DNA of 64,000 bases from Neoarius graeffei. Lineage: Eukaryota; Chordata; Actinopteri; Siluriformes; Ariidae. The stretch lies in assembly GCF_027579695.1 (NCBI RefSeq), contig NC_083569.1:76619149-76683148 (forward strand). Reading direction: 5' to 3'. Positions 29,205-56,859 of the stretch are shown here, in pieces (the first letter of the stretch is position 1; the number at the start of each line of letters is the position of its first letter). The notes under the pieces were generated by a model. The model saw nothing but the letters and a program-made list of their open reading frames with translations, ran no database searches and was not told the origin of the DNA. The translations under genes and the position numbers were made by a program.

Positions 29205-30909
29205 ACCTGACAAATGGAAGCTGCCATATTCCACTGGAGACAGATCGGGTTGGACTAACATACATCTACAGCCTAGCTTTTTCTCTGGGTCTGCCAGCGA
29301 ATCTGCTTTCACTGTGGGGACTTTACCAGCTGGGCCGCTCAAGCAGAGGTAGCCCTCAGCTGGTTTATATCCTCAACCTCTTGCTATCAGATTTTCTCCA
29401 GTTGATCACCTTGCCTCTGTGGATCCTCTACCTACAGAGAGCTCATCGCTGGCCCTACGGTTCCATCACCTGTCAGTTGGTGGGCTACGTCTTCTATGTA
29501 AACGTCTATGCAAGCATCATCTTTCTGTGTCTCATAGCACTGGACCGCTGTCTGGCCATTGTATACCCATTAAGTAGCCGTCGTGTGAGGAAGATGCGGC
29601 TGTCTGCATTCTCTGGTATAGTCGTCTGGACTCTTGTATTCCTGTTCTGTCTAACTGGTCTCTACCCATCTGTATTTGAGCCCCAGAAGGGCTTGTGTCT
29701 GGAGCAGTATCCTGTCACTCCAAAATATGCTTACTTTAAAATAGCCACAGTGGTACTGGGTTTCCTGATGCCATGTTCTATACTTGGGTAAGTGTGTGTG
29801 TGCGTGTGTTGAAGGTGTTGATTAATTCTCTATAACAGCTGTCAGTAGTACCCGCTGTAATTCAAATCACAGGTTAATATTAATGTACTTGCTCTAATAT
29901 GTTATCATTTCTGTAGTAACAACTCCTTCACTTGTAGTGGACTTGTAGTTAAGCCTCACCTAATCTATGCCTCATGTTAAATGGATTTTCAAAAGTTTAA
30001 AAGTGTTGTTATGTAAAAAATGAACATGTATTGGCTCATCATTGATATGTTAACTCGGGATTTATCATTTATGGAAGGAGTCTCCTGGGTCAGTTCTATG
30101 TAACAGTCAGTAGGTTTTTTTATCTCAGAAAAGTCTCCAGGATTGATGACATTTGCACCTTCTCGTTATTTTATTTATTTATTTTTAATGGCCGGGTACA
30201 TACCTGAAATGATATTCACATCATCAATTTTTCTTTGGCTAACCAGACACAAGGTACGCCAGCACACTTGCTGAAGCAGTTGGTGGTTAGGGGCCTTGCT
30301 CAAGGGCACTTCACTGAATCAAACCAGCAACCATTTGGTCCCAAAGCTGTTTCTTTAACCATTAGGCCATGGCTTCCCCATGCATTCTAGTATCACTTTA
30401 ATATTGAAGTTTTTGTATTATTAACATCAAGGGAGCAAACAAAGAAGCTGGTGAAGCTTCTTTTATTAGAAGTGACAACAAGAACAAATTTGTCTCCTAA
30501 ATAACTAAAACATTTAAAAAAGTATGGTGTGTTGGCAGGTATATATATATAAAATCTCATCATCTCTAGCCGCTTTATCCTGTTCTACAGGGTCGCAGGC
30601 AAGCTGGAGCCTATCCCAGCTGACTACGGGCGAAAGGCGGGGTACACCCTGGATAAGTCACCAGGTCATCACAGGGCTGACACGTAGACACAGACAACCA
30701 TTCACACCTACGGTCAATTTAGAGTCACCAGTTAACCTAACCTGCATGTCTTTGGACTGTGGGGGAAACCAGAGCACCCGGAGGAAACCCACGCAGACAC
30801 GGGGAGAACATGCAAACTCCGCACAGAAAGGCCCTCGCCGGCCACGGGGCTCGAACCCGGACCTTCTTGCTGTGAGGCGACAGCGCTAACCACTATGCCA
30901 CCGTGCCAC

Positions 30910-30947
<38 letters not shown>

Positions 30948-31555
30948 TTTTTTTAAATCCTGTGGTATAGGACATACTATTATTGGAAAATACTCAGTGT
31001 GCTAGTAATAGTAACTCTGCTTCACAAGAGGCCATGTCACGTCACTCTGTTGTTGATTGCTTTCCTGTAACAGCATGCCATATCACATTTTGTTCATTAC
31101 AAGCATGTCTGCATCTTTAAAAGAACATAGATTTGCTTCAGTTATTTTGTATATACAGTACCTTGTCAATTGAAACATTCTCCACCTCTCCCTCTCTTTC
31201 CGACAGCTGCACTTCTGCCAGAATCGGGGTAACCCTCCGTAACTCTCCCTCCATCTCTGATCATGAGCGCAACAAAATTGTGGGCACCTTAACAGTCATC
31301 ACCATCATCTTCATCGTGGTCTTCGGGCCCTATCACATGGTGGGAGGTTATAGATTCATATCGCTGCTTCTAACTGAAGATCAATGTACCTTGGAACGCT
31401 CTATCTACTTGTACTACAGGATCTGCTACGGACTCACCAGTCTTAATACACTGTTAAATCCCCTCTTCTATATTTTCCTTTGTCAGAACGCTCGTCTTGA
31501 GCTCCAGAGATCTCTGCCCTGCCTCCCGTGCCCACATAGGTCTGAGGGGCCATGA
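29205..31555 (+). CDS. class-A GPCR, GPR132/GPR4-like, two coding exons visible
   Basis: Exons 29205-29787 and 31207-31555 join in frame (CTT GG|C TGC, giving ILGCTSAR) with GT-AG borders, for 309 codons; the N-terminal start is in an unseen exon. Landmarks in order: glycosylation site NGS; TM1 with GLPANLLSLW; TM2 LNLLLSDFLQL; TM3 ending LIALDRCLAIVYPL (DRC in place of DRY); TM5 GFLMPCSILG; TM6 IFIVVFGPYHMV; TM7 LNPLFYIF. The LPLWILYLQRAHRWPYG loop and FGPYH fit the proton/lipid-sensing GPR4-GPR65-GPR68-GPR132 group, with GPR132 (G2A) the nearest by eye. It is expected at the plasma membrane. Both exons are undamaged. Orthology within the group is not settled. Confidence 0.85.
30240..30381 (-). 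mobile_element. second SINE family, copy 2 (in GPCR intron)
   Basis: Reversed copy of the 15771 family: GCCTTGCTCAAGGGCACTTC, then GCCATGGCTTCCCC at the end. The 3' part is diverged. Confidence 0.75.
30554..30911 (-). mobile_element. tRNA-derived SINE, copy 8 (in GPCR intron)
   Basis: Full-length, reversed, inserted into a (TA)n tract that now flanks it on both sides (30540-30550 and 30912-30944), which hides the exact target duplication. Confidence 0.92.
30912..30944. repeat. (TA)n microsatellite
   Basis: About 16 TA units at the SINE edge within the GPCR intron. Confidence 0.95.
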
Positions 31556-31984: not shown

Positions 31985-32406
31985 GCATTTTTTCATGATC
32001 TTTCTTAAAATCTGGTTACACTTGTGCTGTATTTGTATTGAACATTTGGTGCTGATTAACATTTCATTCATATTACTCATCATCAATTTGGGTCCAGCTT
32101 ATTCTCATGTGCTAATCCACGAACATTATTCTGAGTTTGTGTATCACAAGACAAATTCAGATTTATCTTCCACTTACATAAGGATCAATCCCTTGAGCTG
32201 ATTCCCAATATCAGTATTTCATTTACATAAGAATAAAAAAACACATGTAGCTATTAATTTTATCATTGCCCTCTGTCTAGTAATTATCTGTCATTCAAAT
32301 GATGTTTATTACATGTTAAGGAGAATTGTTCAATACAATTCTGTCCTCATGCTTGAGCTTTTGACCTTTTCATGATTACTTTTCTAATCAGTTTGTTTCC
32401 ACACAG

Positions 32407-33239
32407 ATCTGTGGTTGGTAGAAGAGAGCAACTGGACTTGCTTGAAAAGTCTTGAAGACGTTTCGCCTCTCGTCCGAAAGGCATCATCAGTTCTGTCTGT
32501 CTAATAGGGAGTATCAAGTATTTATCCTCTCATGGATCATAATAGAATCCAAATCAGAATGCTGATGGCTGCATTGAAGGTGGCTGATAGATGTCATAGA
32601 CACCCACCTCTGTTCAGTGATGGTCGTTCCAGGCTGACAAAATTGAACGATCCTCTCTGGCTAAGATGTCTGCCAGTTTTCTGGAAGTCCTCTCATACTC
32701 CCGCACTAGTCGAAGGGAACTCATCCCAAAGTGTGTAGAAACATATCTGTGAAGATACTCAGTCGTCCAGGTACATAGTAATCTGTGGTTGGTAGAAGAG
32801 AGCAACTGGACTTGCTTGAAAAGTCTTGAAGCAAGTCCAGTTGCTCTCTTCTACCAACCACAGATTACTATGTACCTGGACGACTGAGTATCTTCACAGA
32901 TATGTTTCTACACACTTTGGGATGAGTTCCCTTTGACTAGTGCGGGAGTATGAGAGGACTTCCAGAAAACTGGCAGACATCTTAGCCAGAGAGGATCGTT
33001 CAATTTTGTCAGCCTGGAACGACCATCACTGAACAGAGGTGGGTGTCTATGACATCTATCAGCCACCTTCAATGCAGCCATCAGCATTCTGATTTGGATT
33101 CTATTATGATCCATGAGAGGATAAATACTTGATACTCCCTATTAGACAGACAGAACTGATGATGCCTTTCGGACGAGAGGCGAAACGTCTTCAAGACTTT
33201 TCAAGCAAGTCCAGTTGCTCTCTTCTACCAACCACAGAT
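32407..33239. repeat. 833-bp near-perfect palindrome of retroelement 3'-end sequence
   Basis: The two 411-bp arms mirror each other around 32823 with an 11-bp centre and no insertions or deletions (every paired position checked sums to 65646). I saw only one or two mismatches, for example CGAAGGGA near 32712 against its partner near 32932. Each arm carries a 50-bp direct repeat (32407-32457 and 32781-32830 in the left arm). The phrases CAAGCAAGTCCAGTTGCTCT and GAAACGTCTTCAAGAC look like the 3' ends of Penelope-like retroelements, from memory. No reverse transcriptase is present. Confidence 0.9.
33153..33192 (+). ncRNA. hammerhead-ribozyme-like core
   Basis: CTGATGA (33156-33162) is followed by a 7-bp helix II with GGAC loop (33164-33181), then GAAA (33182-33185) and CGTC (33186-33189). 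All conserved hammerhead core bases (CUGAUGA, GAA, A-U closing pair, cleavage after C) are in place. Helix III would be the self-complementary ACGT (33185-33188), which can pair only between two molecules, and helix I is just GAA/TTC (33153-33155 with 33190-33192). Penelope-like elements are known to carry minimal hammerheads. The mirror arm has the same core on the minus strand at 32454-32493. Activity is unproven. Confidence 0.4.
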
Positions 33240-33412
33240 TACTATGTACCTGGACGACTGAGTATCTTCACAGATATGTTTCCACACAGATCAAGCTTCT
33301 TCACTTTTTTTTTTATTTGCATGCCGAGAGTCTTAAGTCATTGGGTTCACAAAAAAAAACCTTAAATGCTCTGCATAATTATATTCCGTCTGCTAATATG
33401 CTTCACAAAACA

Positions 33413-33512: not shown

Positions 33513-33945
33513 TGTCAGACACGTGAGTCTACAAAGCTTGGACTGAAAACGTCAGAGAATATCCAAATGTGCGATCTGACAAAGACAAGGCGTGCCTTTT
33601 CCAAATCCAGAGTCTGTTTGCTTCAAGGAATGAAAATGCACTCTCGTTCCATTGCTGTGTGTCATCGTATCAAGATTATTCAAGGGGAGGAAGAATGGAT
33701 AAAGGAATAATGGATTGCATGTTTTTTTTAAATGACAATAAAAGTACAAAATAATCTCTCTGGCAAGTTTTTTACACCTGTTTGTCTAAAGGCATAGACA
33801 GTATAGCATATTTGCATTGTTTTATTGGTTTGCATGACTTTTTAGAACAGCTGGATCCAGCTCTCACTAATAGGGTGCGCAAGGAAGATTTTTTCTTTTT
33901 TTTTTTTCTTTTTTTTTTGGGGGGGGGGGGGGGACATATGATATA

Positions 33946-34447
33946 CAGGATGTTTCAAAAAATTTGATCTCCTTTCACAATCTAATAACTTTGCCAATTC
34001 TCATTCAACTGACCTCAGATTTTAACAGCATGTGTGGAAACAGGTCACAATTTTATGTTGAATGTTTTTTGTTTTTATCTTTTTAGGAATAGAAATGCCA
34101 TTCACTGGAAAAGAAAAGGTGTTTTGTGTGTTAGAGTACGCTCAAACACAGTCAAACAAGACTGTGCAGTGTATGTTTATGAGAGAATTCTCTAAAAATA
34201 CACCAACTACAATGCGGATTTGGACACGGCACAAAAAGTTCAAAGAGGAAGGCTGTCTGTGTGTCTGTGTACATTTGTGAAATCGTTCATGGAATCCACA
34301 TACCTTTGAATTTCTCATTCAAGTTTTGAGGAAAAAATCTTATATTGCTCAACATTAAGCCTGTTCAGTTTCATTCACCTAGACTATAGAGTTTCTGGGA
34401 TTTTACAACTCAAATAATCTCAATTTTTTTTTTTTTGAAACACCCTG
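33946..34447 (+). mobile_element. short mariner-type element with N-terminal transposase stub
   Basis: 502 bp with ends CAGGATGTTTCAAAA and TTTTGAAACACCCTG, flanked by TA (33944-33945, 34448-34449). An ATG at 34095 opens MPFTGKEKVFCVLEYAQTQS and continues to FKEEGCLC, resembling the helix-turn-helix start of a mariner-like transposase family. The DDE domain is deleted. Confidence 0.85.
34095..34280 (+). pseudogene. mariner-like transposase N-terminal stub
   Basis: 61 codons from MPFTGKEKV to a stop at 34278-34280. The motif REFSKNTPTTMRIWTRHKKF fits the second helix-turn-helix segment. No catalytic residues. Confidence 0.7.
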
Positions 34448-34479
34448 TATATGACTTTTTTTCTCTCTCTCTTCCCCTT

Positions 34480-34625: not shown

Positions 34626-34953
34626 TAGAAAGTCAAACGGGATGAAAAAAAATCGAATTTATCAATGCAAGTACATTTGGAATAGAAATGTATCCTTCTT
34701 TTTTGTTTGCTTTGTCCTTGGGTTTTGGGTTGTTGTTTTTTTGTGGGGGTTTTTGCATAAAAACACAAATCTGTCCTTCAGATGATTTTTTTCCTTTTAC
34801 ATGTACAACCATTCTGCACCAAAACACACACATTTGTTTCACTATCCCTGTGAGGACCTTCCATTAACATTATTATTATTGCAGTTAATTAATGCTGTGC
34901 CGACACCTCATCCTAACCTTAACCTCAGTCATGAAAAGGAAACTTTTTGGCTC

Positions 34954-35016
<63 letters not shown>

Positions 35017-35532
35017 CATCTATCTATCACGGGCGATTGCTCTAAGACAACGAGGGAGGCTCAGCCTCCTCTAAAAATGACGAACATAGAAAGTCAAACG
35101 GGATGAAAAAAAATCTAATTTATCAATGCAAGTACATTTGGAATAGAAATGTATCCTTCTTTTTTGTTTGCTTTGTCCTTGGGTTTTGGGTTGTTGTTTT
35201 TTTGTGGGGGTTTTTGCATAAAAACACAAATCTGTCCTTCAGATGATTTTTTTCCTTTTAGATGTACAACCATTCTGCACTAAAACACACACATTTGTTT
35301 CACTATCCCTGTGAGGACCTTCCATTGACATAATTATTATTGCAGTTAATTAATGCTGTGCTGACACCTCATCCTAACCTTAACCTCAGTCATGAAAAGG
35401 AAACTTTTCGGCTCATCCATCCATCCATCCATCTATCTATCTATCTATCCATCCATCCATCCATCCATCCATCATGGGCGATTGCTCTAAGACAACGAGG
35501 GAGGCTCAGCCTCCTCTAAAAATGACGAACAT
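34626..35532. repeat. 461-bp tandem duplication including a transposon end
   Basis: 34626-35086 and 35087-35532 are near-identical (same AGAAAGTCAAACGGG start, same CTAT/CCAT microsatellite position). Each copy finishes with the first 58-60 bp of a hAT element (CACGGGCGATTGCTCTAAG at 35028, CATGGGCGATTGC at 35473). Only the second continues into the full element. Confidence 0.92.
34957..35027. repeat. (CTAT)n microsatellite
   Basis: About 17 units abutting the partial hAT end; the homologous tract in unit 2 (35408-35472) is mixed CCAT/CTAT. Confidence 0.95.
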
Positions 35533-37002
35533 TGAATCATAGAAATATATGTGCTCAACCCAACCACAGTGCGAAATCATTCCGTTATAACTTTCCCCAG
35601 TTCGCCTAATGTGTGCGTGAGTTTTTCCCCCTCGTGACAGCGCGATGCAGCCCAGCCTCAGTGGACTTTAATGGCATTTGGGAGCTATGCGCTTTCAATC
35701 TCAAAAGGCAAGACGGTTATTGGACAAATACTGAGAAAACACCCACCCACGGAGTCTCACGGACTCCCAGCCTCAGTGGACTTCAATGGCATTTGGGAGC
35801 TATGCGCTTTTCAATCTCAAAATGCAAGACGATTATTGGACAAATACTGCGAAAATGCCCGCCTACAGACTCCGAGCCTCACATGGGAGGGACATGGCAG
35901 TTTCCGTGAGGAGACTGGTGATTGGTGAAAGCGGCCGGATATTTTCTTTGATTGACAGCTCGTTTCAACTTTCGACAGGCAGCGGTGAATTTCAGTTCAG
36001 TCCCATCCAGATTCGCAAGTGCTGTGGTGTATTGTAAGAGATCAGCTTACATTTCGATTTCATTCATTACATACGGTTTCTACCAGCTTTTTTAGTTTGG
36101 ATATATTTTCATTGTAAATAAAGTGTAAATATAGTGTTGTCAAGTTTGCTATCTTAGTTCCAGAAATTTCGTTTATTTGAGTGACTGAACTTGAACTTGA
36201 GGGGGCTAGTCAGCTAGCAAGAAAGCTGCGCACGGATGCCAAGCATTGCTGATTTAATTTTGGCAAAGCCATTTGCCAGTCTTCCTTTCGAGGAAAAAAT
36301 TAAAATTAAAGAGCAGGGTAGACCAATGCCTCAAACTGACTTGGTGAAAAAGGTAGGGAATAATACTCGTTCCTTTCAGCTCTCCTGGTACGAGAAAGTG
36401 AATTGGCTAACAGCAAGTGACCCACATCAACAACAGTAAATAGGCTACTTTAGTAATATGTCATGGATGGACCAAAAATATAGAATCTATTTAAAATGTT
36501 TATGCTGAGTATATTATATTGGAATATATATTTTTCTGGATATGAATTAAACACAGCTACAATTTGGAAAACATTTTTAAACAAAAACACAGCCGAGAAC
36601 ATTTCACACTACAGACCTGGATTAAAAGTGAAGGGTTATCAAAATTGTCAATAAAACATTTCTCAGTCAAAATAAGTAAAATATAGGGAAAGTGTCATTG
36701 AATGCTGAGGTTCCTGACAAAGAGCTGCTTTCAATAATGATCACTTTTTAAACAACATGCCACAATTTTAAAATATAAAATGTTAAAATATACCCCCCCC
36801 CCCCCAAACACCACCATCATGTATATTGGACAGTAGGCTAATGGGCCAAAAGAACCTGTTATTTCACAGTTTGTGATGCTGCCAACAATCAGCCAGATCA
36901 GAGGCAAGAGTATGGGCAAAACTGATGTGTTTTTTCTTTTAAAATCTGGAAATATCGTAACCGACCAGCCTCCCCTGTTTGAAAGACTACCAGCCGCCAC
37001 TG
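35473..37002 (+). mobile_element. non-autonomous hAT element, copy 1 of an inverted pair
   Basis: Ends CATGGGCGATTGCTCTAAG and (reversed) CAGTGGCGGCTGGTAGTC. Inserted in a CTAT microsatellite, so an 8-bp CTATCTAT duplication is plausible (flank of the partial copy at 35028 and 37003-37010). A subterminal tandem pair of about 110 bp (around 35650-35760 and 35770-35880) shares GGCATTTGGGAGCTATGCGC. It carries a short TTF-like coding stub. A second copy lies inverted at 39678-41197. Confidence 0.88.
36236..36439 (+). pseudogene. hAT (TTF/ZMYM1-like) transposase N-terminal fragment
   Basis: 67 codons starting MPSIADLILAKPFASLPFEE; the motif RSFQLSWYEKVNWLTAS matches the start of the TTF-type zinc-finger module in hAT proteins. 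The stop follows DPHQQQ. The downstream zinc ligands and catalytic domain are missing. An almost identical frame is at 40099-40302 on the minus strand. Confidence 0.7.
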
Positions 37003-54907: not shown

Positions 54908-55278
54908 TTTTAAACCTTTATTTGTCACATGCACACTTCAAGCACAGTGAAATTCATCCCCTGCATTTAACCCATCTGAAGCAGTGAACACACACGCACA
55001 CACACCCAGAGCAGTGGGCAGCCACACTAGAGTGCCCGGGGAGCAGTCAGGGGTTAAGTAGCTTGCTCAAGGGCACTTCAGCCCAAGGCCGCCCCACGTT
55101 AACCTAACTGCATGTCTTTGGACTGTGGCGGAAACCGGAGCACCCGGAGGAAACCCGCGCAGACACGGGGAGAACATGCAAACTCCACACAGAAAGGCCC
55201 TCGCCGGCCGCTGGGTTCGAACCGAGAACCTTCTTGCTGTGAGGTGACTGTGCTAACCACTACACCACCGTGCCGCCC
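54908..55278 (-). mobile_element. composite SINE: same tRNA head, different tail
   Basis: 55093-55278 (reversed) is the tRNA head and first body half of the common family. The rest (54908-55092) is unrelated to its usual tail and reads TTTATTTGTCACATGCACAC and CAGAGCAGTGGGCAGCC. The join is at the GTTAACCTAAC block. This looks like a distinct chimeric SINE family. Confidence 0.75.
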
Positions 55279-56859
55279 AGTACTGCAATACCAGGTTGAT
55301 GCGTGGAGCAGAAGGAGCAAGCCCCCATATTCCAGCTCCCTGTTCTAAAAATCTGTTTAATATAACGTTCTCGTTTAGAGAACATATCAGATATTAAACT
55401 GATAAGAACAGATACTACACAGATAATTGTTATTGATACAAACAATTTAAAGATTTATATATTAATTTTCTAGTATCAAACAACTGTGTCTGTACTTTCA
55501 CTCTGTGAATTACAAATTATTCCATTATGTTCCTCTGTGAAGACCGAGCCTGATCATGCTGAAGATGGACTGCCAACGCTACCACTGCCTAGTTTGCCCA
55601 TTGATGCTCTTGTTGCCATGGATGATCAGGAATCACCTGCTAAGATAAAGAAAGAAGAAACAGCAGACTGTTCAAGGTCACAAAAGAAAAACAGTGCCCT
55701 GGCTGACCTTTTTGGTGATGTGTTTGTCACTAAGTGTGAGCCAGGTAAGAGCATAAGCCTACAAAGAATATGAAGTTCTGGATCTGGAGTCTGATCCTTT
55801 GATGTGGTGGAGAGCAAGGGAAGGCAAATACCCTATCCTCTCAAAGTATGCAAAGCACTGCCTTGGGGTTTCTGCACCTAGTGTTGCAAGTGAGTGAGTT
55901 TTCTCAACGGCTGGAGATGTTGTCAGTGCCCAAAGGGCATGTCTTAGGCATGTTGACATGTTAGTTTTCATATCCAAAAATATGATTTATTCCTAATGAT
56001 TTGCTTGAACTGTTTTAAGTTGGAGTTTCGAGCCAAAGTTATGAAACAGTTTTACATGTTGTCGAGTTACTACTGTTACTTGTACTAGTTTACTGACACT
56101 GACAGTTCCGTTTGAACTTTTATGAATATGCAAAAATATTCCTAATGATTTACTTTACCTGTTATCAGTTATAGTTTTGAGCCAAAGTTGCAAAACAGTT
56201 TTACATGTTGCTGAATTACTAGTGTACTGATTGAACTGTTATAAATATGCATAAATATTAAATTACTCTCTTTGAAGAGGAAAGTGTTTGTGCGTGAGCA
56301 TGACTGATACTCACTGCTCTGCGCTCAGGAATTTATCAATTCAAGGTGCCAAAATATCCTTATTTTAACTTATTTTATACGGTATATTTTGTTTTGTTTT
56401 AAGCATTTTACACTTACATATCCTGTTCCCTTGTCAGCATTTGGAAAGTTTTTTCTTGTTTCCAGACAAATTTCAATGGGATTTTGTTCATTAAAGTTTA
56501 AAATCTGAGGTTTGTTTGTCCTTTATATTTATTTGCAGAATTGAATCGAAATGAATTGAATCAAAGGGTCTGAATTGTGAATCGAATCAAATCAGTGTCT
56601 TAGTGAATCGTTGCAGCCCCAGTGTCTGGTGTGACAAGTGGGTCCATTTCAGTATTACGAACTTTTTGGTATCACAAATTATTTGGACGTCCCCAAAGGA
56701 GTTCGGTATAGTCGGGTTGCAGTGTACTTGCAAAGTTGCAGATATCTTGCTGATACACGATGACAGGGTCTCACAGCACAGGTTGATCACAGCATAAATG
56801 TATTTTATGAATATAATTCAACAGTACAAATATTGGAAAATATGTATTTTATTGGAGAC

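What the first reader, a model, noticed from the sequence alone, without database searches (positions are those of the whole stretch)
33153..33192. Complete hammerhead ribozyme core with a dimer-only helix III
GAA-CTGATGA-helix II-GAAACGTC-TTC contains every conserved hammerhead core base and a 7-bp helix II. Helix III would be the self-complementary ACGT, as in minimal hammerheads thought to act as dimers. Penelope-like elements carry minimal hammerheads; I place this repeat in that group only by resemblance. The palindrome puts one core on each strand. Helix I is only 3 bp, the weak point.
Basis: partly seen in the sequence, partly recalled or inferred. Interest (0 to 1): 0.7.

Follow-up and report, generated by a model that had tools for sequence, protein, structure and literature searches.

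The report
Hammerhead ribozyme in palindromic Penelope remnant
A small RNA-cutting motif sits inside a short, young, head-to-head double copy of a Penelope-type jumping gene in what is probably a fish genome; the motif and its host element are of a known kind, but this copy seems to record how such elements insert.

Summary
33153-33192 carries every hammerhead core base, a 7-bp helix II, a self-complementary ACGT in place of helix III and a 3-bp helix I; an antisense copy lies at 32454-32493. A strict descriptor gives 2 hits in the window and 2 in all in 600 shuffles. The surroundings match Penelope-like elements: head-to-head arms (one mismatch in 409 aligned nt), outer ends 37-46 nt apart (the PLE 'tail'), right end 115-121 nt into the ORF frame (Anolis 111-118), a flanking 16-bp repeat. 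I read it as an internally deleted, non-autonomous PLE insertion; minimal dimer-type hammerheads of PLEs are in print. Not shown: cleavage, covariation (no relatives found), Rfam or Pfam support (none). Most interesting: the central joint falls in a 4-nt interval that holds the predicted ribozyme cut (about 1% by chance if uniform), as if one cDNA ran off a ribozyme-cut RNA. At this locus the palindrome is predicted to bury the ribozyme in a hairpin.

The parts
33153..33192 (+). minimal type I hammerhead motif: helix I GAA/TTC, core CTGATGA + extra U, 7-bp helix II, GAA, ACGT, C17; predicted cut 33189|33190
32454..32493 (-). same hammerhead motif on the other strand (left arm)
33162..33164 (+). 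ATG formed by A9-U-G10.1, candidate PLE start codon (a second ATG lies at 33159); no stop in the stretch translated, to 33299
   Evidence: start codon after G8 as stated for Anolis Poseidon in PMC11167929; the A9-U-G10.1 reading is mine
32831..33276 (+). right arm: first tail copy (to 32914), body, hammerhead, second tail copy
32410..32830 (-). left arm: antisense copy, shorter at its outer end; inner end in the 4-nt interval around the ribozyme cut. Outer boundary ambiguous by 3 nt (32407-32410)
33240..33276 (+). 37-nt 'tail' present only at the outer end of the right arm (37-46 nt counting boundary ambiguities)
   Evidence: PLE tail 30-40 bp in PMC11167929, 31-bp tail and 37-bp-shorter inverted pLTR in PMC3846280
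32394..32409 (.). left copy of TGTTTCCACACAGATC, probable target-site duplication
33277..33292 (.). right copy of TGTTTCCACACAGATC; 10-16 nt assignable to the target, since the element's internal copy reads TGTTTCTACACA here
33014..33043 (+). LERPSLNRGG, which from memory resembles the C-terminal end of PLE GIY-YIG endonucleases; the frame is broken by stops
   Evidence: translation; no Pfam match

Best explanation
It is a young insertion of an internally deleted, non-autonomous Penelope-like element, made as two cDNAs joined head to head. In the source RNA, minimal type I hammerheads in tandem units (374 nt apart) would pair through ACGU and cut before UUCAAGAC (inferred; dimer action is proposed for the class). 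PLE protein from an autonomous copy cuts both target strands with a stagger, and each 3' end primes cDNA inside the tail region: one at the inner start (33239 equivalent), one at the outer start (33276). The left cDNA ran to the ribozyme-cut 5' end of the RNA; the right one stopped about 15 nt short; the two 3' ends were joined over 3 nt of microhomology. Shown by sequence: the arms, the offset of the outer ends, the joint, the flanking repeat, the motif. Inferred: ribozyme activity, the internal deletion, two-sided priming, mobilisation in trans.
For: Arms: 1 mismatch in 409 aligned nt, a TCG/TTG difference (a second mismatch in the 414-nt pairing lies in the joint itself). Outer ends differ by 37-46 nt and the right end lies 115-121 nt into the frame of ATG 33162; in Anolis Poseidon the commonest RT start lies 111-118 bp into the ORF, the 30-40-bp tail spans the two start sites, and the protein cleaves and extends both target strands (PMC11167929, parts 1-2 of 4 read plus passages). 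Rotifer Penelope: inverted pLTR 37 bp shorter, head-to-head palindromic joints, TSDs of 8-10 bp in three described inserts (others lack one) (PMC3846280, passages and Discussion). Joint: the left arm's 5' end is one of 33189-33192, which includes the predicted product end 33190: 4 of 374 positions. Motif above chance. Minimal PLE hammerheads, proposed to cleave as dimers, are reviewed in PMC7761336 (passages).
Against: No Pfam match for the four peptides given and no Rfam hammerhead match. No relative found by the patterns and searches tried in viral, genome, plasmid and phage collections, so family, consensus and covariation are untested. In vitro the Anolis ribozyme was dispensable for insertion, unprocessed RNA was the main substrate, it cut only with protein present, and no RNA-seq reads began or ended at the cut site (PMC11167929). 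Folding energies do not favour the hammerhead. The element's internal copy matches 11 of 12 nt of the flanking repeat, so the repeat is not fully independent of element sequence; 617 (overlapping) non-simple 16-mers repeat within 1 kb elsewhere in the window, so only its placement is telling.
Confidence: 0.72

Rival explanations
1. Same PLE element, but the palindrome arose by snap-back: one cDNA reached the cut 5' end of the RNA, its 3' AA folded onto the TT that lies beyond an 11-nt loop and primed its own second strand.
For: The joint CTTGCTTGAAAAGTCTTGAAGCAAG allows a 2-bp stem with an 11-nt loop (read); self-priming was proposed for rotifer Penelope joints, though on an antisense template (PMC3846280). 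Near-identity of the arms follows at once.
Against: The second strand (right arm) could be no longer than its template, yet it extends at least 37 nt beyond the left arm's outer end; this needs a later trimming of the left end that just equals a PLE tail.
Confidence: 0.2
2. The palindrome is an assembly or library artefact (fold-back chimera) of a single PLE insertion.
For: Near-perfect arms with a tiny spacer are a usual sign of fold-back artefacts (knowledge, not tested); reads could not be inspected.
Against: Different outer ends, a flanking 16-bp repeat and a mismatch between the arms fit a real insertion; head-to-head inserts are described in another animal.
Confidence: 0.05
3. A retrozyme: a non-autonomous, HHR-bounded repeat spread through small circular RNA, here with a 374-nt unit.
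For: Unit length 374 nt lies within the ~170-400 nt given for metazoan retrozyme circRNAs (PMC7229834, passages).
Against: Metazoan retrozymes carry canonical type I HHRs with loop contacts and a (often weak) helix III; here helix III is absent, and ATG, tail and head-to-head arms are PLE traits. A cDNA from a circle would not be expected to end at the cut site (inference).
Confidence: 0.12
4. Chance hammerhead-like sequence in an unrelated palindrome.
For: No Rfam match.
Against: 2 strict hits in 600 shuffles; 0 of 73 matches outside the window combine helix II >=4 bp with helix I >=3 bp (the 73 include near-identical relatives of each other); PLE architecture predicts the motif just here.
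Confidence: 0.03

Closest known systems
Minimal hammerheads of Penelope-like elements (Cervera & de la Pena 2014; Lunse et al. 2017: not held, known here from titles in a reference list and from reviews PMC6155905 and PMC7761336, passages)
   Same: Type I layout, helix III nucleotides missing, thought to act as dimers, sited in the pLTR
   Different: No difference could be tested: no published PLE hammerhead sequence was at hand. The extra U at 9/10.1 is a trait I could not compare
Poseidon PLE of Anolis carolinensis, PAc (PMC11167929, parts 1-2 of 4 and passages)
   Same: Start codon after G8 at the start of stem II; cut 26 bp after the start (here 28 nt from ATG 33162); RT start 111-118 bp into the ORF (here 115-121); tail 30-40 bp (here 37-46)
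   Different: ORF almost wholly missing here; PAc starts cDNA at a site not homologous to the cut DNA, whereas here the right flank could pair with the RNA over 12 bp (11 standard, 1 G-U; inferred from one insertion)
Penelope families of Adineta vaga (PMC3846280, passages and Discussion)
   Same: Head-to-head inverted pLTR, inverted copy 37 bp shorter, palindromic joints, TSD in several inserts
   Different: TSD 8-10 bp there, 10-16 bp here; no ORF between the repeats here
Metazoan retrozymes (PMC7229834, passages)
   Same: Type I HHR, non-autonomous, unit of a few hundred nt
   Different: No helix III, one sense HHR only at this locus, arms head to head

Membership tests
Hammerhead ribozyme (type I, PLE minimal form) | Core CUGANGA / GAA / H17 with helix II | tested here: met
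   one extra U between A9 and helix II
Hammerhead ribozyme (type I, PLE minimal form) | Helix III reduced to a palindrome usable only between two copies | tested here: met
   ACGT at 33185-33188
Hammerhead ribozyme (type I, PLE minimal form) | Self-cleavage before 33190, better as a dimer | not testable with these tools
   needs transcripts; folding energies do not favour it
Hammerhead ribozyme (Rfam families) | Match to an Rfam hammerhead model | tested here: not met
   no known PLE hammerhead was run as positive control
Hammerhead ribozyme (type I, PLE minimal form) | Helix II covariation among copies | not tested
   no relatives found; the genome search did not complete
Penelope-like element | RT and GIY-YIG endonuclease ORF | tested here: not met
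   only short remnants, one of them broken by stops; no Pfam match for four peptides; hence 'non-autonomous remnant', not a full PLE
Penelope-like element | pLTR in direct or inverted copies with optional 30-40-nt tail | tested here: met
   inverted arms, 37-46-nt tail; no sequence comparison with a named PLE was possible
Penelope-like element | Target-site duplication (present in some PLE copies) | tested here: met
   16-bp repeat at both ends, 10-16 nt assignable to the target; no empty site seen
Penelope-like element | HHR overlapping the ORF start | tested here: met
   ATG 33162 = A9-U-G10.1, no stop to 33299; that this is a PLE ORF is inferred
Metazoan retrozyme | Canonical type I HHR in tandem, circRNA | tested here: inconclusive
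   no helix III and no second sense HHR in the window; circRNA not testable

The most novel reading that the evidence does not exclude
The insertion is an in vivo record that ribozyme-cut RNA is a real template in PLE retrotransposition: one cDNA ran off the hammerhead-made 5' end, met a second cDNA primed on the other target strand from the other of the two RT start sites, and the two were joined head to head. This would give the minimal PLE hammerhead, whose in vivo role a 2020 review calls a mystery, a testable function (setting the 5' end of the copied RNA), and would explain head-to-head pLTRs by two-sided priming.
Probability: 0.35. Interest if true: 0.55.

Novelty: new member of a known kind. 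Interest (0 to 1): 0.33.

Why it matters
The motif adds one more example to the thousands of minimal type I hammerheads that a review reports in animal genomes (PMC7761336, passages). What would matter is the joint: if head-to-head joints of many PLE copies fall on the ribozyme cut and their outer ends on the two RT starts, genomes themselves would answer how these elements insert and what their ribozyme is for, a question that the papers seen here leave open (PMC7761336 passages; PMC11167929).

Tried and rejected
Rfam at gathering and lax thresholds: no hammerhead. The strongest of 16 sub-threshold matches are miRNA families (MIR1883 83.2 bits against a cut-off of 128, mir-133, mir-14) that match the palindrome read as a hairpin, on both strands; rejected as microRNAs.

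Relatives by DNA pattern: viral contigs, four patterns (1, 74, 0 and 72 stretches; L001 is in both the first and the last), genome contigs one pattern (1 stretch, L076, from a record titled as a bacterial MAG). Of the 75 loci, one (L001) has CTGANGA upstream of the searched motif; it is not a hammerhead by helix I. Of 73 matches outside the window in 147 loci none joins helix II >=4 bp with helix I >=3 bp, and none has helix II over 4 bp. I read two of these loci myself; the rest were screened by script only and are taken as chance. BLASTN of 32831-33292 at E 1e-5 against plasmids and phages: no match. Pfam on four peptides at E<=10: none. The literal 15-mer in papers: none. Co-folding two copies: extended duplex, not informative for a hammerhead (a hand-written dimer structure in that script was built but not scored).

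Papers not held: the two primary papers on PLE hammerheads and three others. So I cannot say whether the coincidence of the head-to-head joint with the ribozyme cut is already in print; searches made.

Full report
What is there. The window reads GAACTGATGATGCCTTTCGGACGAGAGGCGAAACGTCTTC at 33153-33192. Numbered as a hammerhead: helix I GAA/TTC; C3-A9 = CTGATGA (33156-33162); an extra U (33163); helix II 33164-33170 with 33175-33181, seven pairs of which one is U-G; G12-A14 at 33182-33184; ACGT at 33185-33188 where helix III should be; C17 at 33189. The cut would fall between 33189 and 33190. The same bases lie on the other strand at 32454-32493. The pattern is above chance: 2 window hits against 2 hits in 600 shuffles for a strict descriptor, 0.095 per shuffle (largest 2) over 200 shuffles for a loose one, and a mean of 0.01 over 100 shuffles for the literal pattern. 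The two window hits count as one event.

Against the motif. Rfam 15 gives no hammerhead at any threshold tried. No known PLE hammerhead was run as a control, so the miss may be due to the missing helix III and the extra U. The energy model prefers another fold (-13.8 against -8.6 kcal/mol for the hammerhead pairs without helix III); it keeps helix II but pairs the extra U with G12 and uses core bases. It does not model the tertiary core or ACGU dimers.

The element around it. Two arms face each other head to head: 32407-32815 pairs with 32831-33239 with one mismatch in 409 bases, TCG in the sense of the left arm and TTG in the right, which fits decay of a methylated CpG; the left arm runs on to about 32830. 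So the insertion looks young. The right arm runs on at its outer end for another 37 bases to 33276. The 84 nt that begin 15 nt after the ribozyme cut (33205-33288) also stand at the start of the right arm (32831-32914, one mismatch), 374 nt upstream. So the copied RNA held one unit and the start of the next: tail, body, ribozyme, tail. The internal copy joins a different sequence after 32914, where a full element would carry the rest of its ORF; I read this as an internal deletion. A broken frame there holds LERPSLNRGG (33014-33043), which from memory resembles the end of PLE endonucleases; Pfam finds nothing in the four peptides tried.

Why a Penelope-like element. No sequence of a named PLE was at hand to align; the case rests on architecture. 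Four features agree with papers seen here. [quoted passage not shown] here A9, the extra U and G10.1 spell ATG, the cut comes after its 28th base (31st if the ATG at 33159 is used), and the frame has no stop in the stretch translated. This would explain the extra U. Second, in Anolis reverse transcription starts most often 111-118 bp into the ORF, and the two start sites bound the 30-40-bp tail; here the right arm ends 115-121 nt in (118-124 from the other ATG), and the left arm at least 37 nt earlier. Third, a rotifer Penelope copy has a head-to-head inverted pLTR that is 37 bp shorter; palindromic joints are common there, and TSDs of 8-10 bp flank some inserts and are missing from others (PMC3846280). 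Fourth, TGTTTCCACACAGATC flanks the insert on both sides (32394-32409, 33277-33292), with no other exact copy on the + strand and no other BLAST match of that stretch at E<=1. That repeat needs care: the element's internal copy has TGTTTCTACACA at the same place, so 11 of its first 12 bases could be element-derived; the C shared by both flanks and the GATC argue for target DNA. The shorter TGTTTCCACACA also occurs at 34031 on the other strand, and repeated 16-mers as such are common in this window (617 overlapping non-simple ones within 1 kb).

How it was made. The joint at 32828-32832 can be placed in four ways; they put the left arm's 5' end at 33189, 33190, 33191 or 33192 of the unit. The predicted ribozyme product begins at 33190. 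Four of 374 positions is about 1%, if all positions were equally likely. The right arm starts about 15 nt further in. The simplest account is two cDNAs, primed on the two strands of a staggered break, the left one running to the end of a ribozyme-cut RNA, joined by 3 nt of microhomology. Anolis protein cleaves and extends both target strands in vitro. Snap-back of one cDNA is the main rival, but it leaves the 37 extra bases of the right arm unexplained. Against a role for the ribozyme stands the in vitro finding that it is dispensable for insertion, that unprocessed RNA is the main substrate, and that no RNA-seq reads began or ended at the cut. One insertion cannot settle this.

What it does now. 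A transcript through this locus is predicted to fold back on itself (MFE -848.5 kcal/mol over 899 nt, 96% paired), with the ribozyme paired to its own antisense copy. So the locus is more likely a source of double-stranded RNA than of self-cleaving RNA (inference). Tandem source copies elsewhere, not seen here, are where the ribozyme could work as a dimer.

Where. The window holds pieces of a rhodopsin-type receptor gene (7tm_1, E 1.7e-26 and 1.1e-8) and a U2 RNA gene. From memory, a repeat with CCTCACAGCAAGAAGGTCC is common in bony fish; the species is unknown. The collections that answered hold prokaryotes, viruses, phages and plasmids; no relative was found there, and the whole-genome tool did not complete.

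Verdict. Minimal type I hammerheads in PLEs, proposed to cleave as dimers, are already in print (reviews PMC6155905 and PMC7761336, passages; the primary papers by Cervera & de la Pena and Lunse et al. are known here from reference lists and reviews only). New member of a known kind; the joint at the cut site is the part worth following.

Noticed in passing
55255-55446 (-): U2 spliceosomal RNA, 110 bits, full-length model match.
   Followed up: no
29381-29791 and 31133-31555 (+): Two ORFs matching consecutive parts of 7tm_1 (profile 28-168 and 165-260 of 260), probably one G-protein-coupled receptor gene; the PLE insertion lies about 0.8 kb downstream of the second.
   Followed up: partly
33941-33962 and 34431-34452: 22-nt inverted repeats, 95% complementary, 468 nt apart: looks like a short terminal-inverted-repeat element next to the PLE insertion.
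   Followed up: no
35613-36037 (+): Overlapping ORFs that repeat a phrase (starts MAFGSYAL at 35671 and 35786), a tandem repeat of about 115 bp.
   Followed up: no
34801-35106 (+): ORF with a run of LSIY repeats, i.e. a tetranucleotide-type simple repeat.
   Followed up: no
3437, 20448, 23348, 38038, 57852, 59799, 60234 (+ strand counted only): Interspersed repeat with CCTCACAGCAAGAAGG in seven places, from memory common in bony fish.
   Followed up: no
33277-33288: The right flank could pair with the element RNA at the RT start over 12 bp (11 standard, one G-U; compare 32903-32914), whereas published Anolis work reports no homology at this step; one case only.
   Followed up: partly
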